Shown: positions 21,801-61,730 of the stretch, one piece after another | Layout of the letters: the number at the start of each line of letters is the position of its first letter | How positions within the stretch are numbered: position 1 is the stretch's first letter | Assembly (NCBI RefSeq): GCF_004210375.1 | Contig: NC_134830.1 | Span: 42,785,094 to 42,849,093, forward strand | Direction of reading: 5' to 3' | Length of the DNA: 64,000 nucleotides | From: Tachypleus tridentatus | Taxonomy: Eukaryota; Arthropoda; Merostomata; Xiphosura; Limulidae | Position numbers and translations under genes: made by a program | The notes under the pieces: model-generated | The model's database searches: none | What the model was told of the DNA's origin: nothing | The model's input: the letters and a program-made list of their open reading frames with translations, nothing else

Positions 21801-24800
21801 ATATTTTTTATTAAAAAATTTAAGTTGTTAACATATTCGCATTTCTTGTTGATATTTTGGGTGTTTGATGCATATTAATAAAATATTCAAAGGACGTTAC
21901 CTCGAATAATCTCAAGATGTTGCTACAGATTATGCCTACAATTTCCCATACGAATAACGATTAATTTCCTTATCTTTCCATTTCTAAATTATTTGTTTGT
22001 TAGTGGACTTTCGATCAATCAAAGTTCCTACACATGTGTGGATGTGTGACTGAATTTCGCCGACAAAATGAATTTATTGACTCACATTGATAACAAACTT
22101 GCTCCGTTAAATTTTGAATGTAAATGTATAAAACGTTGTGACTTGCGCACTCTAATCTCTCTTTATGCATAGGAATAAATAAATCTGAATAAAAATGTAA
22201 TTGATATTTTCGGATATCCTTGAACAGAAAAGGTGTAGATAAAGTACTAGAATGATTAGAACCGTCACCTGACTAGTGTGTGTGTCACATGATCCAATTA
22301 GAATCGTCACCTGACTAGTGTGTGTCACATGATCCGATTAGAATCGTCACCTGACTAGTGTGTGTCACATGATCCGATTAGAATCGTCACCTATCAGTGA
22401 TGACGAGAAACCCACTTGTTGAGAAATATATATGCAAAAACGGCTCGTTTGGGCTCTTTACATAGAAGAGCGAACAACGTTTTGACCTTCTTCGGTCATC
22501 GTCAGGTTCACAAAGAATCGTCACCTGACTAGTGTGTGTCACATGATCCGATTAGAATCGTCACCTGACTAGTGTGTGTCACATGATCCAATTAGAACCG
22601 TCACCTGACTAGTGTGTTACATGATCCAATTAGAACCGTCACCTGACTAGTGTGTGCCACATGATCCAATTAGAAATTTCGTCACTTTTTGCCGAATATT
22701 TGTTGTCAGCTTAAATATTCGTCGCAAAGAGACATTATTTATTTTTCTCCCAACATTTCCCAAAATAGACATATAAAACTATTGCTGGTAGAATTCACAG
22801 AAAATGAGACTTTTGTTTAAAAACTGGCGAAGAGTTTGTTTGCTTTGAATTTCGTGCAAAGCAACTCAAGGGCTATCTGCGCTAGCCGTCCCTAATTTAG
22901 CAGTGTAAGACCAGAGGGAAGGCAACTACTCATTACCACCCACCGCCAATTCTTGGGCTACTCTTTCACATTATTACTCCCACACGGCTAAAAGGAGAGT
23001 ATGTTTGGTGCGAAGGGGATTCGAACCCGCGACCCTCAGATTACGAATCGGACGCCTTGACCCACCTGGCCATGTCGGGCCTTTGGCAAAGAGAGAAAGC
23101 GTTTGACCCACTCATTTGACCCTGTATATATATAGATATTCAGGGATGTAATGTATATATTAAATAAAACGATGGTTTTTAGTGAAAATGAAAAAGAAAA
23201 GGAAGAAATGAAACTGATTTAGAATTTTCTGTTGACTGGTTTGCTCATCATTCGTAAAATAGGCATAATCTAATGCCCTTCTCCAGAATTGAAAAGAACA
23301 AATTTTTGGCCTTCATCCTGTTTGTAAACTTTTATTCAACAGGCTGTACTTATTTTTTATTCTAGACTTGCGCAAATTTTTTCAGTAACCCCCAATGATT
23401 GTGAAGTAACGAAAAAAAATGTGCAAATAGTTTTTCTTAGAGATTTGAATTTATATATACCCACTTTTTTTATTCCATAAAATATGGCTTAGAATGGCTT
23501 TTAAGATAACCTTTATTCGCCGTTAAGGAAATAAACAAATTCAGTACGGGAAGTGCTGTGACGAACATCGAACTGGGCTTGTGCAACGCGATCACCTAGC
23601 AACCTTAACAAGTTAAGCCTTACTTTATCTGTGGTAAGCTTTAATATATACTAACCTTAGCACTAACGGTAAAAGAACTCAATCTGCGTCTATTTCACTG
23701 AGGCAGTTACGCCTCTCATTTAGTTTTAAATAAGTATTTATACACGTATTTACTCCATATAATGTAATATATTTGATAATGAGTGTACTTAAGCAATATT
23801 TTAATCTGTATATTTCTTCCTTGTGCGAGCTTTTTCCCAGTAATGATTAAAGTATAAGTGTCTTCAGTTGATCTGAAACAAAAATAAGTGGATTCCAGCT
23901 GAAAAAAGCCCAGCATGTTTAGGTGCTTACGGCGTTCAACTTGTCGCGGATACACGAAACATGCTTGCCCTTTCAGCCGTGAGAGAGTTACAACGATCAA
24001 TCCCACTATTCGTTGGTAAAAGAGCAGCCCAAGAGTTGGCGGTGGGTGATGATGACTAGTTGCCTTCTCTCTAGTCTTACACCACTAAATTAGGGACGGC
24101 TAATGCAGATAGCTCTCGTGTAGCTGTCCGCAAGTTTCCAAAACAAACAAACCCAACCCGGCATGCTGTCATGCATTGTTCGACTATTCACGAAGACGAA
24201 GTTTATTAATTAATTATCTTTAGTTATCTGCAAATTTGCACATATTAATTTAGTTGCACGTTATTGCAGATAGCCCTCGCGTAGCTTTGCGCGAAATTCA
24301 AAACAGACAAATAAATCATTCGAAAAAATCTTGATCTAAAATAACATACATTTTAACTCAAACAATAAGTGATATATCATAAACACAACAAAAATGAAAC
24401 AACTTGACATTATTGTATTCTTTCTTCTCTTTACTTGTATGCTGTGAAAGTTAATTTACATTCAATTTAGCTCCAAATTAATCAAATCAAATTTTGCTCA
24501 GCGTAGCTCGGTGACGATTTTTAGGCACGGAATTTCGGTATTTGGAAGACAGGAGTATATGTATTGCTAAACATTTTAATCATAAATCAAGAGGAGGCTT
24601 AATTTCAACGTGAGAGAGAAAAAAAACGAAACATGTCAGACCGCGACTGACTGCCAGTCGCGTGCAGACACGAAGTAGTGAAAGCTGCTCGTCGCCGGAG
24701 GTAACCCAAGAACATAGCTGCCGGTCTGTTCCAGCTAAAATAGGAATCACACTTGGAAAATAAACAAAACTCTGTCGCGGAAATGTAAGTCTGAAGCTCC

Positions 24801-34700: not shown

Positions 34701-37700
34701 TCCTAGCTGTTTGTACATCGCTACAGCAACTTTGTTTGACACTCGAACAAAGAGATCTACAAAGTATGCTCTTTTCCTAATAACAAACAAGAAAAAAAAT
34801 TCTATTTATAAAGAAAACATAAACCTAATACTTATTATATTTAACTTCAGAGTAGGCCTTGTCATTTTAAGAATTGTTATCAGCTACAAGTATTTCATTG
34901 TGAAAACAAATACTAAGATATATTTTCTTTATGCTACACTCATGGGATCAATTAATATTACATGGAAGTCGTGTTTAAAGTCTTAGTAAAAAAAATGTCT
35001 TTTTTTTTCTTCTTTCTATTATTTGAATTTCATGTATGTGAATAATGCCAGAAGATGACAGATAATCTGATTAAGGCCTCAATTAAGAAAAAAGATTTGG
35101 CTATGACAGGTTCATGATACATAAATTTGCTTGACAATTTATATACAAACTACATTCTATACAAAACAAACCACTGTCTGGATGTCAAATAATATTCTTT
35201 CAACTTGAAAAAATGTGAAATAAGAAATGAATAAAGAGCAGTTATAAAGTTTGATGTTTCTAGTAACAAAAGCTCGTTTGTTATGCACAAAGCTACTCAA
35301 TGGACAGTATGTATTGTGTCTACCACAGGCATCAAAATGCAGTTCATAGTATTATTTGTTCTTCACACTAACTGCAGAGTCATGAGGGTGTAAAATAATA
35401 AATGAAATATGTTTCATTAAAAAGGTGAGATGCTAGAAAAAAAATAAAATAAAGGAAACTGGTAACAAAACATAAGGGCACTATATTTTCCCATAAAATT
35501 ATATTCATTGATATTATTTATAATGTCTAAAATAATATAGATTACTACCACTATTTTCACTGACAAAAATTAACATTTTTAACATAACATGCAGAAAGTG
35601 TGAATAAGATATTGGTTCTAACTAACAAAAGTAGTGATGCAATAATTATTAAACATTTTATAACTTAATACACAATGGCTGGAATGACATGGAATCCAGT
35701 GGTGATGATGAACAGTTTCCTGAAATAATTTGAGCATTTTTTAAAAACAAATGGTTGAGAAACCAACCAGAAATAATATTTTAAATTTGCTGTTAACCAA
35801 TAATAAGGATATGGCTATAAAATTTGAACTGAGAGAAAATTTTAGGGGGGTTGGGGATAATAATCAGATAGGAATAAAACTTTCTTGGAATGACTTAGGA
35901 TGAAATTTTAGGTGTATAGGTGTCTGATGATTATTTAAAAATAAGTGATAAGAACACACAAGTTGTCCTACATATCACAGTTCAGTTAGTTTTGCTTCTG
36001 TAATGAGAAAAATTCTGTACAGTCTGATAAAAGGTGCTTTACAAAACCATTCAGTGAAATATTGTATCACAAAAGAAAATAAACACATATTTCCTGAAGA
36101 GAAATCTTGACTTCTAGGTCTGTTAAATTTTTTAAGGATGCAAATTTATATATATAATGAAAAGTGTGTGGATTGATGGATCATTTTTTTGTACCACACA
36201 AAAGATTAAATACAAAAGTCACATCTCACAAAGTTGGAGAAAGACTATTTATTTCAATTGAAGAATGACTAGGTGAGAAAAGTCACGTTTGTTTTTTTAG
36301 TGAAATCCAACTAAATTAAACCTTTGTTACTAGTAGCAATAAGATTTGGAAAATGTTTATTTTTTTAACAGGATGATTTGTTTAGGGAATGAGATGCTGT
36401 CAGCAGTGGTGGAAACCATTATCTTGTAACAGTCAATGATTTCCTGAATAATGTGGCATGGGATAGATACACATGAAGAACACATGGTCTTCCCAGTATG
36501 GTATGCTAAACTAATTTCTTTTCATACTTTTCTGATATTTCTTCCAGACCAGCCATTAATGTTGCTGCTAAGCCCAACCTTCTGTACTCTGGAGCAATTG
36601 TGAGGGCTGTCACATGTCCATGCCAATTTTCTCCAGGTCCTTCTGCTTTTCCCATAACTAAAACCAACAACACAGCATTTAAAATATGATCTACATTAGC
36701 ATTCAATACTGTGCCTGATGTTCAGTGTTTTAGAGCAACTGTAAAATATTGACTTATCAGAGCCGTTTTTTTTCTTCATTACACTATGTACACTGGGGTA
36801 TAAAACAACTATCCTATCATCATGACTTTACACTAGTTACACTATGCAACACAAATTTTATTCCTAGATAGTATGTGTTTATTCTTAATTGCTTATGTTG
36901 TAAAAGTACAGAAAATGGCCATTATTCCCTTTAAACTTTGCTTTTGTGACCTGGATAATGAAATTTAGAAATTAACCTATTTTCTATGTAAAAACGGGCA
37001 AATTTGCAAATTTTCATTTACATAAGGTCTAAATCAAACAACATAAAAATCAAGATTTACATGTATTTATACAAAAATGTTTAGAAGTGAGTAGTTTTTT
37101 TGAGATTTGCGAATGTAATGTAAATCACTTTCACGTATCAGTCCCCAAATATAGTCTCCCATCATGTTTTCGTTATACGCTGCTGGGTCACAAAAGCAAA
37201 GTTTGAAGAGAAAAACAGATATTTTCCATTTACTTTAGGCACAGGCAATTGGGAAATAACACTTTCTGCCCAGTAACAAGAAAAAGTAAAAATTTTGTTA
37301 CAGTGTTATGTATACCAAGAAGAATAGGAGTTACTTTAATTACGTATCTTACCTGATAGAATGTATGTACAGGCAGACCTAAAGCTGAAATACATCATGA
37401 TTAAAATAACTGTAGGACACAGCTTAATATTTATCTTATTATATAAAAAAATCCTTTGATATCTGAGAACACTTAAAATTGGCTTATTTCTTTGATATCA
37501 AACAATTGATTGATTGATTGATTTAGTGTTTTATGGCACAAAGCAGCAAGGCTATCTGCGCCAGACATTCGGTAAAAATGTAAAAAATAAATAAATGTAG
37601 TAATAGACATAAATGGAAATGAAGGTAAAACAAAAAAGTATAAAACCAATGTTGACACCTAGTCTACAATGTTAAGATAGAAGGCAAAGTATAAGAAGTT

Positions 37701-40700
37701 GTAAGGTATTTAGTCCAGCAAAAAGGTAATGATCATAACCCGCCAGAAAGACTAACAGGTAAGTTCAAGAACCACCGTCAGTCACCTGAAGTTGGCCTTT
37801 CCAGTCCTGGTTCTGGGTTATGTGTCATAGCAGCTATTATCAAAATGTAAAAGAATAAAAGTTTTAAAAGACACTCCGCAAAATTGTAATAATAAGTAAC
37901 CAAATGTCCAGTAAAAAGATAAAAGTCAAGTAAATGGAGTAAAATTTGTAAAAGTAATTGAAGATAAAAGCAAAACAGCAATTAAAACAGAAAATGGCAT
38001 AAAAACCAATGTTGACATCCAGTCAACAAAGTTGTAAAGGACTACCTGTAGCAGAATGGTAATGATCATAACCCGCCAGGAAGACTAACAGGTAAGTATA
38101 AGAACCACCGTCAGTCACCTGAAGTTGGTCTTTCCAGTCCTGGTTCCGGGTTATGAGTCAATATGGCCAGTATTAAAAAGTAAAGTAGTAAAAGTGTGAA
38201 ATGATATGTAGCAAAAGTATAATAACAACTCGCCAGGACGACTAACGAGTAGTTCAAACAGTAGCGTTAGTCACCTGAAGTTGGCCTTTCCAGTCCTGGT
38301 GTCGAGTTATTTAATGTTCTGGCCATTGTCCAATGTCAAATTGAATGAGAGAGATTAAAACTGTAAAAAAGGAACCACAATTAAAAAGGTGTAATGAATA
38401 AATATGCAACACTTAAATGAGATTAAAAAGATTAATGGCCATTAAAAAATTAAAAACATTATCAAGGTGGACAGAGTCACCATCACCAAAACTCTGTCCA
38501 ATGTTACAGACTGACCCTAGGAAAAAATATGTTTAAAATATTGCCATTGTTGAGAATTGTAACGATGGCAAAAAAGTAAAACGTGGCTGACAGTGATTTG
38601 AGTGTTACACAAACTACACATTGGTGCATCAGTTCCAGATAAAAGAAAATGATGAGTTAAAAAACTGTGACCAATGCGTAAGCCTAGTGAGAACAACTTC
38701 CTCCTTCCGAACTTTACGGAAACTAGATGGCCAAAGTTCAATTTTGGGTTTGATTTGAAAAAGTTTGTTGTCGCCTTGCTCACTCCAAGTGGACTGCCAG
38801 CTGGCACAGAGCCGAGCCTTGAAGACAACACCATAGTCCATGTACAGAATAGGCATAGGAGTGATGGTGCTGAAGCAGACATATTTAGCTGCCATGTCTG
38901 TATGCTCGTTCCCGCAAATACCAACATGGCCTGGTATCCAGAAAAACTGGATTGAAGTAGCTGCCAATGAGAAATGGGCCAGTCGGTTTCGAATATCAGT
39001 GAGAATAGGATGTGAGCTAACGTGTAGCGATTCCAAGGCAAGTATAAAACTAAGCGAATCAGTATAAATAGTGCAGTTGGAGTACTGCTCAGCTGCAATA
39101 TGATCCAGGGCAAGAGATATGGCATACAGGTCAGCAGTGAACACAGAAGCTGTAGAAGGGATTCTGCGTGCAACTACTGACCCATAGCAAACCATAGCAG
39201 AGTCCACTGAATTACCTGATTTGGAACCATCTGTATAAATGGGAACTGAATGATTGTTTGAAAGATATTCATTGAATAAAAGACGGTACTTCCAATCTGG
39301 AGTATCTGCCTTTTTTAGGCGACTGAAAGGTCACATTTGGGGGCTGTAATAAGCCATGGTGGGATGGGCCAACCTGTGGAATCTGCAATGTTATCCAAGG
39401 ACAGACCCAATTCATCCAATTGTGCCCGAATGTGAAGGCCAAACAGAGCAATGACAGATTGTCTGTTCTGAAAAAGTACTGCCCACCGAGGAAGGAAAAC
39501 ACATTTCCAGGTGGGATGCTTTGGTAAGGAATGAAGTTTCGAAGTATACTGTAAAGATAGTTGCAAACGGCGAAGGTGTAGAGAAGGTTCATGAGATTCA
39601 ACGTATAAGCTTTGAACTGGAGAGATACGGAAAGCCCCAGTGCAGAGTTGAAGTCCTTGGTGATGAATGGAGTCCAGCATCTTTAAGGTCGAGGGTCTGG
39701 CAGAGCCATAGACCATTGATCCATAATCGAGTTTCGATCTAATAAGAGCACGATATACCTTTAACATTGAACAGCGATCTGCCCCCCAACTGGTAGAAGA
39801 GAGAACACGGATGATGTTCAGTGCTCTTGTGCATTTGACCCGAAGCTGCTTTAAGTGTGGTATAAAGGTCAGTTTACGATCAAAGATAAGCCCCAAGAAC
39901 TTGGTCTCCGGGACCACTGGCAGCAAAACTTCACCAATATGAAGTTCAGGATCAGGGTGAATACCCCGTCGACGGCAAAAGTGCATGCATACAGTTTTGG
40001 AGAGAGAGAAATTAAAGCCATTCGCCAGAGTCCACTTCCGTACACAATTGAGGGTGGTTTGTAGTTGCCGCTCAATATATCTCACGTTTGACGACTGACA
40101 TGAGATGTGAAAGTCGTCTACAAACAGCCCATTCACAACAGTGAGAGGGAGTTGTTCAGTGATGGCATTTATCTTTATACTGAAGAGTGTAACACTCAAT
40201 ACACAGCCTTGAGGGACTCCAAGTTCCTGTACAAAAGAACGGGAAAGTGTCGAACCCACACGAACTTGGAATCTCCTGTCCATTAAAAAATTTGTAATAA
40301 ATATGGGTAGATGGCCACGTAACCCATATGTATGGAGTTTTTGCAAAATGCCATACCTCTATGTTGTGTCGTAAGCCTTCTCTATGTCAAAGAATATTGA
40401 TACAAGATGTTGACGGTTGAGAAAGGCTTCTCTGATAGATGTTTCAAGACGAATTAGGTGGTCTGTGGTGGAGTGCTGTCGAGGGAACCCACACTGGGTG
40501 GGCGAGAGGAGGTTGTTTGATTCCAGGAACCAAACAAGACGAGCATTAACCATCCTTTCTAATGTCTTACAGAGACAGCTCATCAAAGCAATTGGACGGT
40601 AGTTTGAAGGAATCTTGGGATCTTTCCCTGGCTTAGAGAAAGGTAAAATAATAGCCTGGTGCCAGGCATCAGGAAAAACATTCTCCTGCCAGATCCAGTT

Positions 40701-43700
40701 GAAAACAATCAGAAGGACATCAAGAGAAGCAGGAGATAGATGGTGCAGCATGTCATAATGAATATCATCAGGTCCAACAGATGTACTGGCAGACCGATGA
40801 AGGGTCATTTTTAGTTCCACCAGGGTAAAGGGACAATTATAGTCAAAGAAACAATCAGTTCGAAAGGAAAGAGGTGATCGCTCTGCCCGAGTCTTGATGG
40901 CCAGGAAGGTGGAGGAACAAGCAGAAGTGCTAGATACCTGGTAAAAGCTTTCACCTAGAGTGTTAGCGATGTTCTGAACATCAGTCACCTCCTGACCATC
41001 AGAGAGTAAGATCGAGAGGGGGACAGAATTGTAGTGCCCATTAACCTTTGAATCCTGTCCCATATGATCTTGGAACTGGTGGTAGAAGATATGCTGGTTG
41101 TGAACTTAATCCAAGATTCCTTCTGGCTTTGACGTCTTACCCACCTAGCATGTGCACGGGCCCGTTGGAAAGCAACCCGCTTTGAAAGTGTGGGATATCT
41201 ATGAAAAGTATCCCAGGCCCGCTTTTGAGCCTTCCGTGCTAAGTGGCAAGCAGGATTCCACCACGGACGAGGATATCGTGGAAAACGTGTCGAGGTTTTA
41301 GGAATACACTGAGCAGCTGCATGTGTAATACAGTCAGTTACCGCTGCTACACAGTCGTCTATTGATGGCTGATTTACGATGGCAGGATCTAGTTCTGCGA
41401 GAGCAGTGAAAGTGGACCAGTCTGCCTGATCCAGCTTCCACCGGGCACGCGGGTAGGGTGGCATCGACCACGCCAGTCTCTCTCAAAGGATCGAAAAATG
41501 ATCACTGCCTAGTGGATTACTGTCAACCCTCCATGAAAAATGGGAGAATAATGAAGGGGAGCAAACTGAGAGATCAATAGCAGTAAAGGACTGACTAGGT
41601 GCATGAAAGTAAGTGGAAGAACCAGTATTGAAAAGAGAAAGATTGTGATCAGAGAGCATCCGCTCTAAAGATCGGCCCCTCCCATCAATAATAGCACTTC
41701 CCCAGAGGGAATGATGTCCATTAAAATCCCCTAGGATTAGAAATGGAGATGGCAACTGTTCAACGAGAGCATCAAGATCTGATTGATCGTATGTCTCTCC
41801 AGGGGACAGGTACAGAGAACAAACAGTAATGGTATGACCCAAGGAAACACGGATGGCTACAGCCTCCAAGGGTGTGTTGAGTGACAAAGACAGGGTGGGC
41901 ACGTGTTGATCAACCAACAGTGCCACCCCTCCATGTACTTGACCATCACACAACCTGTCATTTCTGTACAGAGAAAATTGCCGAATGGAGACAGTATCAG
42001 CAGTTTTGAGAAATGTTTCTTGTAAAGAAAGACAAACAGGATGGTAGGAAGCAATCAGTGTTTTGATATCATCCAGATTAAAACGTAAACCTCGACAGTT
42101 CCATTGTATCAAGGTGGCCATTTTTAAGAACGGGTAGGTGAAGTGGCTGGAGAATCCTTCGGTTTACGACCACGTCTTTTTTCTTTACTATCTTTAGTCG
42201 GAGGAGGTCTATCAACCTCCATGGATCGTGCTCTGGGTCGGGTGGGCAGGTTTTTGTTATTGGAAGGGGAATCCAGTGACTGAGGATGCGAACGAATAAT
42301 TGTTTTGTCTCTTTTGGTGGGAGAAAAAGATGTATCAGAAGAAATGCCTGTATTTGAAACTGAAGGACGTGGATCTTGAGGTTTGTTGGAAGGTATGGGA
42401 GGAACAGAGATGGGTGTGGAAGTTGATTCATCAACCTTTTTAACCACGGAGGTCAAAAGGCTTTTCATTTGTTTTGAAAACGATCCTCTTGGAGGCACAG
42501 AGAGATCTGTCTGCATTCCCACTGTAGTTGTGGAATGAAGTGCAGCAGCATAGGTCCGAGATGGAGTTGTGGACAGCAATTTCCGAGCCTCAGGATAACT
42601 AATGTTATGTGTCGTTTTCAAACGCTGCACCTCTTTTTCCTCCAACCATTTTGGGCAAGAATGAAAGTAAGAGGGGTGAGAACCATTGCAGTTTACGCAA
42701 TGTACCTTGGTCCTTGCCTCCACAATGAGCACATGTCAGGGAACCATGACAAGATGTCTTTGAGTGGCCGAATCTCTGACATTGGAAACATCGAAGAGGG
42801 TTTGGTATGTATGGCGAACCCTGCAATGAGATAACCTGCCTTGATGGTGGCAGGTGCACGTGGTGAAGTAAATGTTAAAACGAGGGTATTTGTTGGCAGT
42901 GTAACTCCATCTTTGTGAGTGGAGATCCGCCTCACTGCAGAAACTCCTTGAGTGGAGAGACCAGCGAGAATCTCTGACTCGGGAACGTTCTTCAAATCCC
43001 TTTCAACAATAACTCCTCATGAAGAATTCAAGGTAGCATGGGGTGTAACCTCAATAGGTATATCCCCAATTGCCTTTGAATTCAAGAGAAGTTCACTGTG
43101 TTGGGAAGTGGATGTTTCAACCAATATGTCACCAGATCGAAGTTTCTTTACTGACTTTGGAGAGCCAGAAAGTCCCTCTAGTCCCTTTTGAATAAAAAAA
43201 GGGGACATTTGCCCTAAAGGTTTTTTCGAAGAGAATGTAATATAAGAAAATGAGGTAATGCGTGTGTTACTGATGTTGAAGATTGCTGTTCTGAGTATTC
43301 AAGACGTGGTCGCTACCCATTGACTGTTTTTTTACAATTTTATTTAAATTTTTTGGAGGATCCATAGGAAAAAGGAAAAAATTTCGGTACCCACTGACCC
43401 CACGCACCATGGAGCCCTACAAGGGGATGCACTACAAAGTCATGCAAGGACAATGCAGCAACGCGAGGGTTTCGTGAGCACTATACCGAAACACCAGCAT
43501 CAGGCACAATGTCCACAACACCCGTTGAGAACTTCCAACATTGGTACTTGGTTGACTCTAGCCCAAGTGGACCAGCCGATTGACCCAAGGGGGGTCACCC
43601 AAAGGCCACCCGTCTACAGGAATTCGAGGCCAAAGTGGTGTGTTAGGGTTGGACCCCTCAACCACCAGGATCCTCTCCTCCCCTTCACGGGTCGCCACGC

Positions 43701-46700
43701 ACGGCAAACACGTGGGTGGATGTTTAGATCCCAGAGAAGGTAACCAGATAGAACAGAACCTTCCCTGGGAGGTCCCCTCACCACGTACAGGAATCCACAC
43801 CGAGGGGATATCAAACAAGAACACACACCTTACAAATACACACCCACACACAGGCAGTAATAAAAATCACCCACTGCGTAAGCAAACATACTACCGTGGT
43901 TAAATCTTATGCCTTTGTTTGCAAGCAGCATAGGCTGGGACATTTAGAGAGGGAAGAAAAACACCACAAGTTTAAGAACTTCAATAGTTTATTACTTACA
44001 CCAAACTTTCTTCTAACACTTTATTTTTCTTTTACCAAGAAGCAGAACTGGCACCAATCACGTAGATTGATGTATGTTATTGGCAATTATGAATAACAAG
44101 TGAGAATCTGCTAAAACCAGTAAAATTAGTTACTCTAATACCAAGTTACTATGAATGATTTTTAAACTAACCTTATAAGACAATTTAACAAACTCAAAAC
44201 ATCTGTGATTTGTAAGGGATGTAAAGCAGTGTAAAAGAGCAATATTAAATAACCTACAACTATATTTTATAAGAGACAGGAGCTACTCACTCAGTGCTTA
44301 CTGTATTTTACATGTTTGAACAAGCATTTCTTATTGACAATAAACATAAGCCTTTAAATAAATGTAAGAATATCTTAGGGTTGCATCTTTATTATAATTA
44401 GATATCAATTGCATAGAGGTTTGAACCCATTAACTTGTATCTTTACTATAGCACTTAATACAAAAAATTGGTTGTGTATAAAATTTATACCAGGATTAAT
44501 TTATTAATTGATTACTTTCATTACCATACCACTAGATGTTTTTGTTCATTCAACAAATAACAATGATAACAATAAATTAATAATTTTTTAATGGTAGTGT
44601 CACTTACTGTAGCCCATTATATCACCATTTGGAGCTTCTGCAACTTGAAAATACTCTGGCCAGTGGGCAAGATACTGAAGATAAAAGGATAATCCATACT
44701 GGGATTCAGTTAAGTGATTTCTTAAGTTGACAAGATCAAGAAACCACCTGGTAGTAAGGCTCTATCAAACATGAGAAATGTGGTTTATTTCCAATAAATG
44801 GTAAGAGTAGCTTACAGCTCTGATACAACAAAAAAGTAAAAACTAACGCTGAAGAAGTTAATTACTTAAAACAGGACATGTATGTTGATTAAATACATAT
44901 CTTAAATACAGGACATGTATGTTGGTTAAATACATATCTTAATTACAGGACATGTATGTTGATTAAATACACATCTTAATTACAGGACATGTATGTTGAT
45001 TAAATACACATCTTAATTACAGGACATGTATGTTGATTAAATACATATCTTAATTACAGGACATGTATGTTGATTAAATACACATCTTAATTACATTAGC
45101 ATTATAAGCACCACAGAATAACCATCAAAAAGGAACATAAAGATGAATAGAAGAAAAGGAAGATAAAGATGCAACCAGTTGGAGATTTAGAACTTTTAAG
45201 ACAGAGATACCCTTTGTATTCAACAGCACTAGAAAACAAAGAAATATGGATAAACTTGGGGAAAATGACCATTCCAAATGAAACTTGAAACAAGGTCAGT
45301 GTTAAAAGTTATCTATGTCGTTCAGGCAACAGTAGAAAACAAAAGTAAGAATTACTTCTGTCTATAAAAGCAACAAAAGTCATGTACACACAAGTTACTT
45401 CCACAAAACTTCAAATCAACCACTGCATACCTCAAAAACTAGTTTAAAGGTATTAATGCCATTCCATACATAGACATACGAGTCAAGTTGCAAGATGTAG
45501 TGCTGATCAACTGCTGAGGTCAGATTGTTACAGTGGGAATTGGGAAACTGTAGTTCTTGTACATTATATGGATAATAGAAAGACTAAGTCACAGTAGTTT
45601 GATTTGAGCATGATAACCTTACAACAAAGCCTTTTATCTGATGATCGTGCATCCAGTTCTCAAGATAACATGGACTGTGACATTATGGTAAGGCTTCAAA
45701 ATATAACACATTTCACCTCTATATAACCCAAAACAACTATGATAAGAACAGTACTTCAAGTAAATAAGATAAAGAACAAGTGATTCCAACAACTGGTAGG
45801 TGTAATTTAGGGTAATTTAGTTATTTTCTGCTTTTCAATAATGCTCATTTACATTTAGTTTTAATAGAGGAGGCTATATTACTTATTCCTGAATTATGTG
45901 CAAGCTAATACTAGTACAATATCTATATTTGTAATGTAGATTACAAATGAGGATAAGGTTAAAAATCAATAATTATAAAAGTCTGGACTCTTATTTTGAA
46001 ATGTTAATCATACCAATGAGACTAATAAACAACACAGACTTGTCCTAGCTGAAAGCAGTCTGTTAACTGATTACTTGCAGCACATATAGTATAATGTTTA
46101 GATATTAAAAATACCACAGTAATAGCATTTGTGTATTAGTAATGTTAAAACGTTTAGATACAACTTAACATACACTATAGTTCTACATAACACAATAAAA
46201 GCTATTAACAGAGTGAAGATCTAGAGCTGAGAAATTAGTGATATTTTCTACTCAATTGTTGAGTTCATTAACTGATTACATTCAGCTAGTTTATTACTTT
46301 TAAACATGGATAATTAGAATAACTGAAAACAGTAACAACCAAAAACACTAATGTTGATCAGTTGATAATTTCTGTAAGTCATGACACTATAGTTTAAACT
46401 GCACAAGCTTGAACTGGACGAAAATTTAAAAAAATACATAAACCATATATTGGAAGTTGGAATAACTGAAAATAATTGGAAACAATAATTTGTTCATTAG
46501 TACAAGACATTTATTTACTCATGATTTTTTATTAACCAATTATTTTACATTACACTAATGAAGGTTGGTTGGTTGAATTGCTGTTTTATGGCACAAAGCA
46601 GCTAGGCTATCTGTGCCAAACATCCAGTAAAAAGTTAAAATTAAAGTAAAATTAGGAAATTTGTAAAAGTAATTTAAGGTAAAATAAAACAAACTTAAGA

Positions 46701-49700
46701 AAAGTATAAAACCAATGTTTACATCTAGTCTACAGCATTAAGAGAAAAACTACAGTAATACAAGTTGTAGAGGACTTTCTGTAGCATAATTGTAATTATC
46801 ATAACTTGCCAGGAAGACTATCAGCAAAGTACAAAGACCACTATTATTCACCTGAAGTTGGCCTTTCCAGTCCTGGTTCCAAGTTATTTTACGTTATGAC
46901 CATTTTCAAAAAGTAAAGTAATAAAAGTTTTAAAAAGACTTGTAGCAAGATTTTAATAATAACTCATCAGGATGACAAACAGCAGCATTAGTCACCTGAA
47001 GCTGGCCTGTCCAGTCCTGGTTTTGAGTTATTTGACTTTTGATGGCCATTTTCTACTTTAAAATCGAACTAAATGGACTGTGATTCTTAAAAGGGAATCT
47101 CATTAAAAAGGTCTAATGTATAAATTAAAAGACTTAAATAGCATTAAAACGGTTAATGGCCTTTAAAAAACTAAAAACATTTCCAAGGTGGACAGTGTCA
47201 CCATCACCAATAACACTGTCTAATGTCATGAACAAACTTTGGGACAGAACATGTTTAAAATGATGCCATCATTGAAAGTCATAACAACAGCAAGAAAGTA
47301 AAATATGGTTTACTGTGACTTGAGTATCACACAGACTACACATTGGTGCATGTTCCAGATAAAAGAAAATGAGTTAAAAAAACTGTGACCAATGCATAGT
47401 CTAGTTAGAACAACTTTCTCTTTCTGAACCTTATGAAAACAAGATGGCCAAAGTCCAATATAAGGTTTTATTTGGAAAAGCTTGTTGTCACATTGCTCAT
47501 TCCAAGTCAACTGTCAACTGGCATGGAGTCGAGCCTTGAATACAGGACCATAGTCCATGTATGGAACAGGCAGAGCAGGGATAGTACCAGAGCAGATAGA
47601 TTTAGCTGTGGCGTCGGTGAGCTCGTTCCCATGAATATCAACGTAACCTGGTATCCAGAAAAACTGGATAGAAGTAGATGTTAAAAGATTATTGGGCCAG
47701 TGAGTTTTGAATATTGGCGAGAACAGGGTGTGAATGTAAGTGAAGCAATTCCAGGGCCAGTAGAGAACTAAACAAGTCAGTATAAATAGTTCAGTTTGAG
47801 TACTGCTTAGCTTCTATGTAATCCAGGGCAAGAGAAATGGCATACAGTTCAGCAGAGAACACAGAAGTTGTAGAGGGGATTCTGCACACAACAATCAAAC
47901 TACAACAAATTATAGCAGAGCCCACACAGTCACCTGATTTTGAACCATCTGTATAAATAGGAGTGGAAGGATGGTTCGAAAGATGTTCAGCAAATAACAG
48001 ACAGTATTTCCTTTTCTACGATGACTTAAAGCAGGTCACATTTGAGGACTGTAAGAAGCCAGGGTGAGATGGGCTGACCAGTGGATACAGCAATGTTATC
48101 CAAGGACAGACCCAATTCATCTAACTACACCTGGACATGAAAGCCAAAAGGAGCAATGACAGATTGTCTATTCTGAGAAAGCACGACCCACCGAGGAAAG
48201 AAAACACAATCCCAGGTGGGTTGCTTTGGTAAGGAACAAAGTTTCAAAGCATATAGTAAAGACAGTTGCAAACAGCAGAGGTACAAAGAAGGTTCATAAG
48301 ACTCTATGTATAAGCTCTGAACTGGGAAAGTGTGAAAAGCCCCAGTGCAGAGTCATAGACCAATGATCCATAGTCGAGTTTTGAACGAATAAGAGCACGA
48401 TATATCTTTAGCATAGAACATCAATCCACTCCCCAGGTGGTGGAAGAGAGAACATGGAGGATGTTCAGTGCTCTTATACATTTGATGTGTAGCTGCTTGA
48501 TGTGTGGTATAAAGGTCAGCTTACAATCAAAGATAAGCCCCAAGAACTTTGCTGATACAGAGTTCAGGATCAAAGTGAATACCCCATCAATGGCAAAAGT
48601 GCATGCAAACGGTTTTAGAGAGAGAGAAGTTAAAACTGTTTGATGTGGTCCACTTTAGTAAGTGATTCAGTCTGTAGCTGCTGCTTAATATACTTCATGT
48701 TTGACGACTGACAGGAGATGTGAGAGTCATCGACATAGAGCCCGTTTGCAACAGTAAGAGGGAGTTGTTCTGTGATGGTACTAACATTTATACTGAAACA
48801 TGTGACACTCAAAACACAGCCCTGAGGTACTCCAAGTTCCTGTAGAAAAGAACAGGAAAGTGTTGAACCTACATGAAATTGGAATCTCTATTCCATTAAA
48901 AAATTTTTAATAAAAATGGGCAAATGGCCATATAACCCATATATATGGAGATCTTGCAAAATGCCATACCTCCATGTTGTATCATAAGCCTTCTCAATGT
49001 CAAAGAATACTGATACAAGATGTCGTTTGAGAAAGGCTTCTCTGATGGATGTTTCATATCGAATCAAGCGGTCCATGGTGGAGCGCTATAGTCAAAACCC
49101 TCACTAGGTGGATAAAAGGAGGCTGTTTGATTCAGGGAATCAAATGAGATGAGCATAAACCATCCTCTCTGAGGTCTTACAGAAACAGCTCGTCAAAGCA
49201 ACTGGACAGTAGTTCGAAGGAATCCTGGGATCCTTCCCAGGCTTAGAGAAAGGTAGGACAATAGCCTGGCACCAGGCATGATGAAAAACAGTCTCCTGCC
49301 AGATCTGGTTAAAAACAAGCAGAAGAATAGTAAGAGAAACAAGAGATAGATATTGCAGCATTTCATAGTGTACATCATCAGGTCTAACCAATGTACTGCC
49401 AGGCCTCATAGCCAGTTTGAGTTCCAATAGTTTAAAGGGATGATTATAGTCATAAAGACAATCAGCTCAAAAGGACAGAGGTGTTTCCTCTGTCTGAGTT
49501 TTGATGGCCAAGAAGGTGGAGGAAGAAGCAGAAGTGCTAGATACCTGGCAAAAGTTTTCACCTAGATTATCAGTAATGTTCCGGGTATCAGCTACTTCCT
49601 GGCCATCAGAGAGCAAGATCAAGAATGGGATGGAATTATACTGCCCACTGACCTTTTGAATCTTGTCCCATATGACTTTGGAACCGATGGTAGAAGATAT

Positions 49701-52700
49701 GCTGGTTGTGAACTTAATCCAAGATTCCTCCTGGCTTTGACATCTTACCCACCAAGCATGTGCATGGGCCTACTGGAAAGTTGCAGCGCAAGAGTGTGGG
49801 ATACCTAAGAAAAGTATTCCAGGCCCGTTTTTGAACCTTCTGTGCCATGTGGCAGGCAGGATCCCACCACAGATGAGGATATCATGGAAAACGTGTCAAA
49901 GTTTTAGGAATACACTGAGCAGCTGCTTGTATAACACAGTCAGTTACTGCTCCACACAGTCGTCTATTAATGGCTTACAGACAATGGCATGATCAAGTTC
50001 TGCGAGAGCAGTGAAAGAGGGCAAGCTTGCTTGATCCAGCTTCCACCTGGGCATGCAGATCGAGTAACATTGCCCATGGCCAATCTCTCTCAAAATTATA
50101 GGAAAATGATCACTGCCTCATGGATTATTATCAACCCTCTATGAAATGTGGGGGCATAGTGAAGGGGTACCAATTGAGAGGCCAATAGCATTAAAGGACT
50201 GACTAGGTGCATGAAAATAAGTAGAAGAACCAGTATTGAGAAGAGAAAGGTTGTGATCAGAGAGTATATGCTCTACAGAGCGACCCCTCCTATCAACATC
50301 AGCACTTTCCCAGAGGGGATGATGTCCATTAAAGTCCCCCAGGATTAAAAAGGGAGATGGCAGCTGTTCAACGAGAGCATAAAGGTCTGATTGATCATAG
50401 GTCTCTCCATGTGGCAGGTAGAGAAAACAAACAGTAATGGTACAACCCAAGGAAACATGGATGGCTACGGCCTCCAAGGGTGTGCTGAGTGGCAAATACA
50501 GGGTGGGTATGTGCTGATCAACAAACAGTTTCACCCCTCAATGAATTCATCCATCACACAGTCTGTCATTTCTGTACAAAGAACACTGCTAAAAAGTGAC
50601 TGTATCAGCAGGTTTCAGAAATGTTTCCTGTAAGGAGATACATACAGGATGGTAAGAAGCAATCAGTGTTTTGATGTCATCCAGAATAGAACGTAAACCT
50701 CGACAGATCCATTGTATCAAGATGGCCATTTTTATTTACGTGTAGGTGAATTCGGTGGAGAACCCTTCTCTTTATGACCACATCTTTTTACTTCACTGCT
50801 CTAGGTTGATTGGGCTGGTCTTTATTGTTGGAAGAGTATTCCAGCAACTGAGGACATGAAGGAAAGATCGTTTTGCATTGTGTGGTGGGAGAAGATGTAT
50901 TCAAGGAAATACCTGTACCCAAAACAAAAAGGAGCTGATGAAGGTAATCAATGCTCACAGGTAATCTGTTAACTGAGTTAGTTACTTAGCTATACATCCC
51001 ATCCTATTGTAAATAATGGTACTGCCAGTTCACATGTGCATTTAAACAGTTTTACCATATTTCAAAAAGTAACCAAAAGTTTTCAAGAAAAAATATGTAT
51101 TAATTCTTCAAAAATGTAAAGACTAATATAAACACATGCTGCTGAACATCTTTGGGTATGTGTTTAAATACATAATATCTAAACAAACTGCCTAAAAATA
51201 GAATTTCCCCCTCCATACACTATGATGCCAAAACTCAAGATTCAATACAAATACAGGATGCTGTGCATACTGTATTGTCAAATCTATAAAGCATATATAC
51301 ATTTCACATTTTACCCCTGCAAACAGATATATACACATGCACACTACACCACTGATAAAGATTCTTCACACTAAAATCAACTAAAGCTTGTTCTACATCT
51401 TGCATGCAATTTTCCTTTTTCACGATCATAAACAAGAACAGGATAACATTTCTCATTTTGTAGCAGTCTATATTACTTTAACAGTCAAAAGGCATCAAAA
51501 CCAAACCCTGTGATCAGTACTTATAGTTCCACAAGTTTTTGTATTTTGATTTAATTTTGTCCAATCTATTCTCACACATTTAAGTATATTTAAGCTTTAA
51601 CATAACAAACATGGTATGATACTTTCTCTGACCTCTTTCCATCAAGTCAATGTTCTTTTCTAAATAAAGAAGTAAAAATAATACAAAGTATTCTAAGATA
51701 GACCTAACTCATGAATTTTAGAGAAATAATTACCTCTTTTAACTTGTAATCTTTACATTTAAAACCAACACCTAAATATCTTTTTTGCTTCCTACTAGCC
51801 ACAGAGCTCTGTTCTGATGGTTTCAGTAACTTGCCCACAACTATGTCAAGATCCTTTCCTTCAGTAATAAAATTGTGTAGGTTCTGGTTTCTAGTACAAC
51901 ACAAAAAAAGTAAATACACATTCACATAATAACTGTTATTTTATTAGGTCTGATATATGAACGAATGGTCATTGAATATCACTATGTAACAAAATGTTTA
52001 CTTTTTCTTGTTCCTGGGTAGAGAGAGTTATTTTCCAATTGCTTATGCCTAAAGTAAATGAAAATGACCTATTTTTCTCTTCAAATTTTGCTTTTGTGAC
52101 CTAGGTAATGAAATTTTCAAATTTACCCATTTTCCAGAACATTCCAGGTAGATTCAGTGCTGAGTAGCTGATACAGAATTTTCTCGAACTTATCAGAATT
52201 TAAAAACTTACAAGAATTTTCAAGAACAATTTAAAATTTTCTAGAACTTTCCATAGTAATATATATACAGGTGCTCACCACTCACCACTTTTAGATTAGT
52301 TCTAGCTGCCTAAGTGATCACATAGACCTATCTGATTTTATCAGAGATGGCATCAAGAAGCTGCAAGCATTCTACAAACACATTCTGCTATGCATGTGGC
52401 CAATTTATCAGGACAAGAGCAAAAGAGTACTCTGTAACAGCATCTGCAAAAATGTGTGAAATATACAAGGCAAATTTTGACAAACCCTAGACACCTCATT
52501 TTATCTGTGAGCACTGCAAAAAAACTCTGGAAGACGGACAATTTTTGCTTGCTTGAATAATAAGATTTTTATATTATTCAAATTTTAGACCTTTCAAAAT
52601 TTAAATATCTTTCAGTGCACCTCAAAGGGGAATACAACAGTGTCAAGACCTTGCTAGAAGCCTTGAAGTATGATGAGTATGGCTAGGAGGTTATCAGAGA

Positions 52701-55700
52701 CTTCAAAATGGTGGCATTCCTGATGGGTCTCTAAGGAGGCTTCACCAAGTTTCCCTGTTATCTTCGCCTTTGGGACAGCAGGGACACCGCAGTGTTCTAC
52801 AACAGAAAACACTGGCCACAACGGTCCGAGTTCTCTGTGGAGAGACATAATGTCAAGTGTGAGCCACAAGTGGACCTCCAGAAGATGTTGTTCCTACCAT
52901 TGCACATAAAACTGGGTCTCATGAAACAATCTGTCACAGCTCTTGATAAGGAGTCTGTAGCCTTCAAGTACCTTCGAGATTTCTTCCCTAAATTGTCTAA
53001 GGTAAAGGTCAAAGCTGGTGTCTTAGTTGGACCACAAATAAAGAAGATCCTAGAGTGTACAGAATTCCTCAAGAAGCTCAGTTGGAAGGGAAAAAAATCT
53101 TGGGGAAGCTTTGTTGCAGTGATTTGGAGCTCCTTGGGCAATCACATGGCCAAAAATTATGCAGAACTGGCTGAGGCTCTGGTGAAGAACTGTGGCAAAA
53201 TGGGCTGCAGGATGTCCTTGAAAGTCCATATCCTTGATGCTCATCTTGATAAATTCAAGAACATGGGAGCATACTCAGAGGTGCAAGCTGAGTGCTTCCA
53301 CCAAGATATACTGGACTTTGAATGCTGCTACCAAGAAACATGTAATGAAAACATGATGGGTGACTATATTTGAGGGCTGATACGTGAAAGTGATTTACAT
53401 TACAGTCGCAAATCTCAAAAAAACTACTCACTTCTAAACATTTTTGTTTAAACATATGTAAATCTTGATTTGTATGTTGTTTTATTTAGACCTTATGAAA
53501 ATGAAAATTTGCAAATTTGCCTGTTTTTACAAAGAAAATATGTTAATTTCTAAATTTCGTTATCCAGATCACAAAATCAAAGTTTGAAGGGAATAATGGC
53601 CATTTTCTGTACTTTTACAACATAAGTAATTAAGAAATAACACATACCATCCAGAAACAAAATTTGTGTCACACAGTGTAATTAGAAAGCAATGCTATCT
53701 TGTGTAATCATAGAACTCAAGGTAAAAAAATGTATAAATAAAACCAGACAGCAATATCAAACTAAAACCGCATGACATAACATACACAATATCGTGAAGA
53801 AGAGTTCTTATAACCATCTTTAAAAATAGGAATAGCATGTATAATACTACAATCTTCAGGCCACTGTCTACCGATTTCCAAAAAAATGAGAGAAAGAAAG
53901 GCTTCCATACTTTATCTTTCATTTCCTTTAAAATCTTGAAACAAAGCATTGTCTTATTCATTAAATATGCACTGAGTTTTTCTGACAGTGTTATTCACTG
54001 TCAAAAGTTTTGTATTAATAGAGTAATAAGTATACCTTACTGTAGTATACTAAATAAGATTAACACTAATAATTACTTTCAGCTCTCAAATTAAGTATTT
54101 TTTAATACATCAGTCTTTCTTTCCACCAGAAAGGGATTAATATCTCACAATTCAGGACAATCCCATAGAACATACAGAGTCAGGAATATTACTTTCATCC
54201 TTTCTTATAAGAGAAAACATTACAACAGTCAGTTATTTCAAAGTCTTCATGAAAAATCAAGACATTATAATCTTTTAAAAGGTTCAACACCCATTTTCAA
54301 ATTTGCTTCCCTCAGGGGTGGTTGGCTTCTACAGTTTTGTATAAGCTCCTTTTATACTTTTCATACACTATCGCATCTTCTTGTAAAGTTAATTAAAAGT
54401 TCTGAAGATTTTAAGCTGTTTACAACATTCCATTTCCAAGCCTATTAATTTATGTTGCATATTTTTGACTAAAATAAAAAACTTTAAACTTCAGTCATTC
54501 TGTACATAAAAAAATTTGTAAAACAGAATGAACCACAGTTTTTAAGTTATTACTATGCAGTAAAGTTAAAATCAAACCATTTTTGAAACTAATGTGATGA
54601 ACAACTTCCAAGTTGTATCACACACAAACTGATATTAAGATACAAAGCCTAAAATTTATTACACTTATACCTACAGGACAAACACACATCATAAAGAAAA
54701 AACATGTACATATCTCCACAATTCATCAGAAGTTAAAGGATACTGTCTCTGTTAAGGGATCTAAATTTCTGTAAAAGAAAAAAACAGGAAACAAAATTAA
54801 TAAAAACCAACTAAATTAAAAACCAAAATTTCTAAGTTAATGCATTATAGAGAAAAAATAAAACAAGACTATAAAATACTTCTAAAAAAATTCAGATTAA
54901 TTGATTAAAGGGTTAAAAAGTTATTACAATGGTGTCTGGGATGGAGGGGTTGTCATATGACAAGAGGTTGACATCTCAGAAACTGTTTTATCTTTAAAAA
55001 GAACAGTTAGGGAAGGCCTCTGGTTGAAGTGTTTAAGACTGTAAGGGAATATAGTGTTGATATATCATCTTTTTCATATTTAATAGAATTGTAGGACTGA
55101 GGAACACAAATATAAATTTAAATATAAATATAAAGGAGTCATCTTCAGCTTTGACAGTTTTAGTTTTACAACAGGATGGTTGGTCTTTGGATGTTGTGGA
55201 CACAATAAATTTAAGCGAGTTTATGAAAAGCTTGCTTACTGCATGAATGATAAGAGTTGGACTTAAAGAGTTAAAAAAAATTATTTAGTAATAATTTCAG
55301 TTTAGAAAATGGAACAGCTATGATGGACCAATAGGACTCATGCTCTTCCAAAACATATACACAGTGTTTAGAATTTTGGGTCATTATGTCCCATTAATTT
55401 ATTGAACTGTGTACTTCATATTTCAGCTCCTCTTGAAACAGTGTTCCTAAGATATTTGAATGCGTTGTGCACTACTGTATAAAAACTGTTATTATTAACA
55501 ACTAATTTGAAAACATAAAACTGTAACTTTGGAACTATGGCACTTGTTTTACTTACACCAGTTATAGATTACATTCTTTTGTAGTACTATATAAAGACAA
55601 AATATTCAAACTGAACAATAACCTACGTTAAATAACCTAATGCCATCAACAGTGTCAAACATACTACAATTGCTGTTTATAATAATTTATTTACATACAC

Positions 55701-61497: not shown

Positions 61498-61730
61498 TTT
61501 GGTTTGGTTTGAATTTCGTGCAGAGCTACACGAGGGCTATCTGCGCTAGCCGTCTCTAATTTAGCAGTGTAAGACTAGAGGGAAGGCAGCTAGTCATCAC
61601 CACCTACCGCCAACGTCTTTACCAACGAATAGTGGGATTGACAGTCACATTATAACGCCTCCATGGCTGAAAGGGCGAGCATGTTTGATGCGACCGGATT
61701 TCGAACCGACGACCTTCAGATTACGAGTTT
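61498..61730 (-). repeat. type-A tRNA-derived SINE
   Basis: GAATTTCGTGCAGAGCTACA, CGAGGGCTATCTGCGCTAGC, core GGCTGAAAGGGCGAGCATG and a degenerate B box, truncated at the head. Confidence 0.9.

What the first reader, a model, noticed from the sequence alone, without database searches (positions are those of the whole stretch)
37734..47032. Stem-loop repeated five times in LINE 3' regions, with covarying pairs
Three units in the LINE at 37.5-43.9 kb (37734-37822, 38067-38155, 38226-38308) and two in the copy at 46.6-50.9 kb (46801-46886, 46959-47032) each place two complementary arms around a conserved ~50-60-nt loop. The outer stem changes between units but stays paired: AACCCG/CGGGTT, AACTCG/CGAGTT, AACTTG/CAAGTT, AACTCA/TGAGTT. 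All keep a 3-nt bulge and a CCAGGA/TCCTGG inner stem (one or two single-base exceptions). An inner GACTAACG/CGTTAGTC helix is perfect in unit 3. Compensatory change in five copies points to selection for RNA structure, perhaps ORF2p recognition or RNA stability. I know of no described element like this.
Basis: seen in the sequence. Interest (0 to 1): 0.75.

Follow-up and report, generated by a model that had tools for sequence, protein, structure and literature searches.

The report
Repeated RNA fold in LINE tails
Jumping genes of one LINE family in this animal genome carry, just after their protein-coding part, one to five copies of a small RNA fold whose shape seems to have been kept while parts of its sequence changed, which suggests that the element needs it to copy itself.

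Summary
The five stem-loops are real. Their sense strand is the minus strand; they lie in the 3' UTR between the ORF2 stop (38413-38415) and a separate 3'-terminal hairpin (37534-37563). The sense RNA is predicted as outer stem, 3-nt bulge, inner stem and, in three of five subfamilies, a three-way junction with an invariant hairpin (CUGGA/UUCAG) and a variable one. The core occurs 15,640 times in the genome, against 7 for a reversed-letter control. Elements carry one to five units.

AACTTG/CAAGTT and AACTCA/TGAGTT come from one old copy and fit independent CpG decay: in 58-59 units of its family the arms are uncorrelated. AACCCG/CGGGTT versus AACTCG/CGAGTT is a fixed double change. A divergent family has GACCTG/CAGGTC with the same fold. 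Inferred lineage changes keep sense-strand pairing more than changes in single copies (20:5 against 137:220). No single pair passes a tree-based covariation test, and RNAalifold fails. Two bivalve relatives have a different, also compensated, 3'-UTR hairpin. Likely a cis-acting RNP docking module; not shown.

The parts
38413..38415 (-). stop codon (TAA) of ORF2 of LINE copy 1 (protein ends ..AINLFNLI); start of the 3' UTR
   Evidence: ORF2 domains EN, RVT_1, RNase_H
   Evidence: z -3.0
   Evidence: z -5.1
   Evidence: z -2.3
37696..38235 (.). tandem duplication holding the two A units (207-nt repeat, start-to-start 333, 80% identical)
37534..37563 (-). 3'-terminal hairpin TGGCGCA..TGTGCCA next to the tail; separate from the units; kept in families F1, F2 and F4
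37506..37523 (-). tetranucleotide tail (TCAA)n of the LINE, sense strand
38469..38499 (-). additional hairpin inside the ORF2 C-terminal coding region (GGACAGAG..CTCTGTCC); family F2 has ACAGTG..CACTGT, one A-U to U-A double change
   Evidence: (z -3.4)
46589..46618 (-). 3'-terminal hairpin of LINE copy 2 (TGGCACA..TGTGCCA)

Best explanation
The unit is a cis-acting RNA domain in the 3' UTR of a LINE clade (endonuclease, reverse transcriptase and RNase H in ORF2). In the sense transcript it is predicted to fold as P1, a 3-nt bulge, P2, and a three-way junction with an invariant hairpin and a variable one (full junction predicted for subfamilies F1A, F2A and F4; F1B and F2B only in part). Shown: position, repetition, strand, invariant core, and pairing kept between subfamilies. 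Inferred: the invariant core is the face that a protein reads, most likely the element's own RNP proteins (ORF2p or ORF1p), and the stems present it; this marks the RNA for its own machinery before target-primed reverse transcription, while the separate 3'-terminal hairpin marks the start point. Extra units would add binding sites, which fits their number: one in F4 and some other copies, two in F2, two to five in the F1 group, whose copies are the most alike. I put selection for the sense-strand structure at about 0.75 and docking of the element's own proteins at about 0.4.
For: 15,640 core matches genome-wide against 7 in the control. Of 20 flanks picked from 72 ORF2 protein matches, not by the unit, 18 hold the core with at most 1 edit and 1 more with a deletion. 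Between families F1 and F2 the 33-nt core is 33/33 and 32/33 identical, while the UTR before unit B is 71/102, between units 51/70 and the ORF2 end 175/209. The majority of 13 F4 copies has the same fold with GACCTG/CAGGTC and GACTGA/TCAGTC; 3 and 4 double changes kept against F2A and F1B, p 0.066 and 0.008 over all 27 pairs. Sense-pairing rule: lineage changes 20 kept: 5 broken, single copies 137: 220, p 5e-5; antisense rule p 0.16. Nine subfamilies (155 of 181 units): 226 of 233 scored pair cells standard. Unit number 1 to 5. Bivalve relatives L101 and L102: all five base differences in the stem of a 53-nt 3'-UTR hairpin keep pairing, two pairs by double change.
Against: No pair significant in a tree-null covariation test; best proposed pair E 4.1. 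RNAalifold finds neither outer nor inner stem on 88 copies. In one search the number of pairs changed on both sides is no higher than in shuffles (6 against 6.1). Under a Watson-Crick-only rule one search shows no excess (0 of 14 kept). G.U against A.C states of subfamilies is only suggestive (6:1, 7:1, 6:1 at three clusterings; p 0.11, 0.06, 0.11). Over all 27 pairs F4 keeps 23, which random placement also reaches (p 0.5); it loses the outermost P1 pairs and shifts register in the upper inner helix. P2 and the invariant hairpin hardly vary, so they give no covariation evidence. F1B and F2B are not predicted with the full junction. Nothing tests protein binding.
Confidence: 0.45

Rival explanations
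1. The structured unit acts through host factors: it stabilises the transcript or promotes its nuclear export, like the repeated structured export elements of some retroelements (recalled), rather than binding the element's own proteins.
For: Same structural evidence; multiplicity (1 to 5 units) would also suit a host-factor array; a separate 3'-terminal hairpin exists that could serve template recognition.
Against: No known export or stability element reported by Rfam for the stretches searched; no expression data.
Confidence: 0.27
2. Ordinary tandem repeat in a LINE 3' UTR whose inverted arms have no RNA function; the apparent covariation is CpG decay plus inheritance from few ancestors.
For: CpG arm positions decay independently; no significant pair against the tree null; RNAalifold fails.
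Against: Fixed double change T-A to C-G in F1A, three or more in F4; lineage changes keep sense pairing, p 5e-5; core conserved above its flanks.
Confidence: 0.2
3. The loop AAGGCCAAC, with its GGCC palindrome, makes units or transcripts pair with each other (kissing loops), so the repeats serve RNA-RNA contacts.
For: Nine-nt loop with a palindrome in the majority letters of F1B, F2A, F2B and F4.
Against: About half of the 18 F1A units read GACC instead of GGCC, which breaks the palindrome.
Confidence: 0.05
4. The unit is a separate inverted-repeat element or SINE captured by the LINE, kept as DNA.
For: Inverted arms, high copy number.
Against: Sits at a like place downstream of ORF2 in 19 of 20 protein-anchored copies and in one-unit elements; lineage changes favour pairing by the sense-strand rule, not by the antisense rule.
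Confidence: 0.03

Closest known systems
3'-end stem-loops of stringent-type LINEs and their SINE partners (UnaL2; plant L1 and monocot SINEs, Ohshima 2013, PMC3747384, passages seen)
   Same: LINE 3' region; conserved loop with a variable, compensated stem; thought to be recognised by the reverse transcriptase
   Different: Those are single hairpins at the 3' end; this unit is a predicted three-way junction, about 170 to 660 nt upstream of the terminal hairpin in the window copy, present one to five times, beside a separate terminal hairpin
Conserved 3' UTR stem-loop of human L1 and Alu (PMC5135761; title and start of abstract seen)
   Same: structured element in a LINE 3' UTR proposed to act in retrotransposition
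   Different: different LINE clade, a stem-loop rather than a repeated junction, as far as the abstract's start tells
R2 3' RNA bound by the R2 protein (PMC3414825; start of abstract seen)
   Same: 3' RNA needed for protein binding and target-primed reverse transcription
   Different: site-specific element of another clade; not known to me as an array of repeated units (recalled)
Repeated structured export elements of retroelements (constitutive transport element; recalled, no call)
   Same: repeated RNA structure with conserved internal residues
   Different: no Rfam match reported; different elements
3'-UTR hairpin of bivalve LINE relatives, L101 7066-7118 and L102 2854-2906 (found here)
   Same: RT 50-53% identical; hairpin in the 3' UTR with near-invariant interior and compensated stem
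   Different: different sequence and shape; the unit model gives only chance-level scores there; one copy each seen

Membership tests
LINE with apurinic-type endonuclease, RT and RNase H | EN, RVT_1 and RNase H domains in ORF2 order | tested here: met
   Pfam PF14529/PF03372, PF00078, PF00075, in pieces in several frames
I superfamily clade (Nimb, Ingi, I or other) | RT phylogeny placing it in one named clade | not tested
   clade names recalled or from passages of PMC11203168; no tree with reference elements built
stringent-type LINE 3'-end stem-loop | stem-loop adjacent to the 3' tail | tested here: not met
   the units lie 170 nt or more before the terminal hairpin in the window copy; the terminal hairpin itself meets this feature
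stringent-type LINE 3'-end stem-loop | compensated stem with conserved loop | tested here: met
   between subfamilies; but no single pair significant
stringent-type LINE 3'-end stem-loop | shared with a partner SINE | not tested
   no SINE search made
stringent-type LINE 3'-end stem-loop | bound by the element's reverse transcriptase | not testable with these tools
   needs a binding or TPRT assay
known self-cleaving ribozymes and other Rfam families | match to an Rfam covariance model | tested here: not met
   window 36000-52000 at E up to 5: five matches, all under their gathering scores; one (SNORD86, E 2.2) overlaps unit 5, on the plus strand; L045, L101, L102: none at E up to 1

The most novel reading that the evidence does not exclude
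A whole LINE clade, in two animal phyla, carries a second structured RNA domain inside the 3' UTR, separate from the 3'-terminal recognition hairpin; in this genome it is a three-way-junction module that the element has multiplied from one to five copies as a cis-acting docking array, so that unit number is a tunable trait of a selfish RNA.
Probability: 0.3. Interest if true: 0.7.

Novelty: new variant of a known kind. Interest (0 to 1): 0.5.

Why it matters
How LINE proteins pick their own RNA is largely open outside a few model elements (recalled). A repeated, compensated RNA module with natural copies of one to five units, next to a separate terminal hairpin, gives a direct system for asking what the internal structures of LINE 3' UTRs do, and whether copy number of an RNA module can drive the success of a transposon.

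Tried and rejected
Covariation over all copies with a tree null and RNAalifold: no support; mostly dead copies and few lineages. CpG-arm variants as covariation: rejected. Exact core in IMG/VR and in GTDB genomes: no match. Exact bivalve core in IMG/VR: no match. RT relatives in IMG/VR by single protein and by alignment: none confirmed. Unit model on the bivalve loci: chance-level scores only. The in-ORF hairpin was first taken as 3' UTR; one search shows that it is coding. Scorpion RT protein in the own genome to find new families: of the 20 flanks fetched, 19 were F1-like and 1 lacked the unit. Bivalve core in the own genome: not completed. Papers: the searches gave capped listings (titles and starts of abstracts); none of the rows shown named such a unit. 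Repbase is not held, so the sequence may be in a repeat library.
Full report
What was checked. The window lies in contig C6 of an unnamed 2.17-Gb genome. Among the 120 protein relatives listed of 1,296 found, most without a name, the organisms named are spiders, a scorpion and one Salmonella record, the last presumably contamination; at 50-53% identity there are elements in two Solemya symbiont records. The host is probably an invertebrate animal; it is not named here. ORF2 reads on the minus strand with endonuclease, reverse transcriptase and RNase H pieces in several frames.

Anatomy. ORF2 ends with a stop at 38413-38415. The 3' UTR then holds unit B (38226-38310), two A units (38067-38155, 37734-37822; repeated with a 333-nt period), a 3'-terminal hairpin (37534-37563) and a (TCAA)n tail. 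The older copy at 46.6-50.9 kb has one A and one B unit (46800-46887, 46959-47032). In the sense RNA the majority sequences of F1A, F1B and F2A share the outer stem P1, a 3-nt bulge, the inner stem P2 and the variable hairpin P3; F1A and F2A also show the hairpin CUGGA/UUCAG with its 9-nt loop, and in F1B that hairpin is not predicted; F2B folds P1 and P2 but another interior. The majority of 13 F4 copies folds to the full three-way junction. Units 1 to 5 of the window have z-scores of -2.3, -5.1, -3.0, -1.4 and -3.6.

How common. The 18-nt core with up to 2 mismatches occurs 7,790 + 7,850 times, against 3 + 4 for the reversed pattern. A sample not chosen by the unit, 20 picked for variety from the 72 places matched by a scorpion ORF2 protein, has the core downstream in 18 with at most 1 edit, in 1 with a deletion, and in 1 not at all. 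Among 60 locus entries in which both the ORF end and the tail were found, 4 have one unit, 39 two, 12 three and 5 four; four pairs of entries overlap the same element. Locus L063 shows five. The 13 F4 copies show one in the stretch held.

Is the covariation real? AACTTG/CAAGTT and AACTCA/TGAGTT come from the old copy. In the F2 family to which it belongs, the two CpG pairs are standard in 46 of 59 and 45 of 58 units, against 44.4 and 44.4 after shuffling (p 0.28 and 0.46): this fits independent CpG decay. AACCCG/CGGGTT against AACTCG/CGAGTT is different: the C-G pair is in 18 of 18 F1A units and in none of 8 F1B and 60 F2 units of alignment A2. Family F4, found through L045 and 12 more copies, has GACCTG/CAGGTC, with GACUGA paired to UCAGUC and AGCA to UGCU in the inner helix.

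Formal tests, for and against. Alignment A2 (88 matches, 81 distinct, collected with a sequence-only model): 93.5% of cells paired against 92.8% shuffled (0 of 500), 37 cells changed on both sides against 22.1 (0 of 500), covariation score 0.146 against 0.135 (1 of 500), slid registers at most 0.072; but pairs changed on both sides are no more than shuffled (6 against 6.1) and further pair types no more either (28 against 29.1). Part of the excess is one inherited F1A change. A tree-null test on 181 units found nothing: the best proposed pair is rank 4 of 5,778 with E 4.1, behind three pairs outside the structure that mark the A and B types. RNAalifold found neither P1 nor P2. Parsimony-mapped changes: on branches to clades of 8 or more, 20 keep and 5 break sense pairing; on terminal branches 137 and 220 (p 5e-5); with clades of 4 or more 28 and 11 (p 6e-5). 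Under an antisense rule the clade-8 figures are 13:16 against 109:214 (p 0.16); under a Watson-Crick-only rule there is no excess (0 of 14 against 10 of 314). That mapping breaks ties arbitrarily, counts G.U starting pairs, and leaves out changes that start from unpaired states. By subfamily majority letters at the middle clustering (9 groups, 155 of 181 units), 226 of 233 scored pair cells are standard, 1 is A.C and 6 others, 10 skipped; the other two clusterings give 181 of 185 and 148 of 152; four or five pair positions have two or more Watson-Crick types. A redraw of change positions gives, over all 27 pairs, p 0.066 (F2A to F4) and 0.008 (F1B to F4) for double changes kept, 0.03 for F2A to F1A, 0.19 for F1A to F1B and none to count for F2B to F1B and F2A to F2B; the paired total of F4, 23 of 27, is not unusual (p 0.5). 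Leaving out four pairs where F4 differs in helix length or register, a choice made after seeing the data, gives 0.001 (from F2A) and 0.00015 (from F1B). At one outer-stem position where F2A is split between C and T, I used C in that call.

Conservation. F1 against F2: ORF2 end 175/209, UTR before unit B 71/102, unit B 78/86, between units 51/70, unit A 83/87, 33-nt core 33/33 and 32/33. F4 aligns to F2 beyond the ORF mainly at the core, P2 and the terminal hairpin.

Relatives. The two Solemya records carry ORF2 relatives whose 3' UTR holds a 53-nt hairpin with 6 base differences between them: two base pairs changed on both sides, one pair changed to G.U, one base in the loop. Its fold z-scores in context are modest (-1.4 and -1.5). 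It does not match the unit model, so homology is not claimed; position and style agree.

Reading. I take the structure as selected in the sense RNA (about 0.75). What it does is inference: an internal docking site for the element's RNP, with the terminal hairpin as the start point of reverse transcription (about 0.4), or a host-factor site for stability or export. The idea of a conserved loop on a compensated stem at a LINE 3' end is known (passages of PMC3747384); an internal, repeated three-way junction beside a separate terminal hairpin was not named in the rows shown by the searches.

Noticed in passing
38469-38499 and 47190-47221: A hairpin inside the ORF2 C-terminal coding region, with one A-U to U-A double change between the two LINE families (z -3.4 for the first).
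   Followed up: partly
L101 5001-7400, L102 914-3190: Animal-type LINE sequence inside records of Solemya gill symbionts; host contamination or misassembly seems likely.
   Followed up: no
L002 2700-2790: An older LINE copy has its unit split by an insertion whose start looks like a tRNA-derived SINE head (recalled resemblance).
   Followed up: no
3720-3967, 8948-9178, 13382-13618, 16649-16887, 19312-19549, 22834-23046, 23952-24152, 61508-61728: A family of about 200-250-nt repeats in both orientations, roughly 71-85% alike, recurs at least eight times in the window.
   Followed up: no
11913-12994 and 52608-53678: A 1.08-kb inverted pair, 86% identical, with a further piece at 36833-37188 next to the LINE end.
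   Followed up: no
36720-36783: Weak match on the minus strand to the Rfam snoRNA family sR17 (30 bits, gathering 36, E 0.0014).
   Followed up: no
L043 1482-1580, L104-L106, L108-L111 and others: Unit B of many F1-like copies has a 13-nt longer terminal loop in the variable hairpin while the helix is kept.
   Followed up: partly
   Followed up: no
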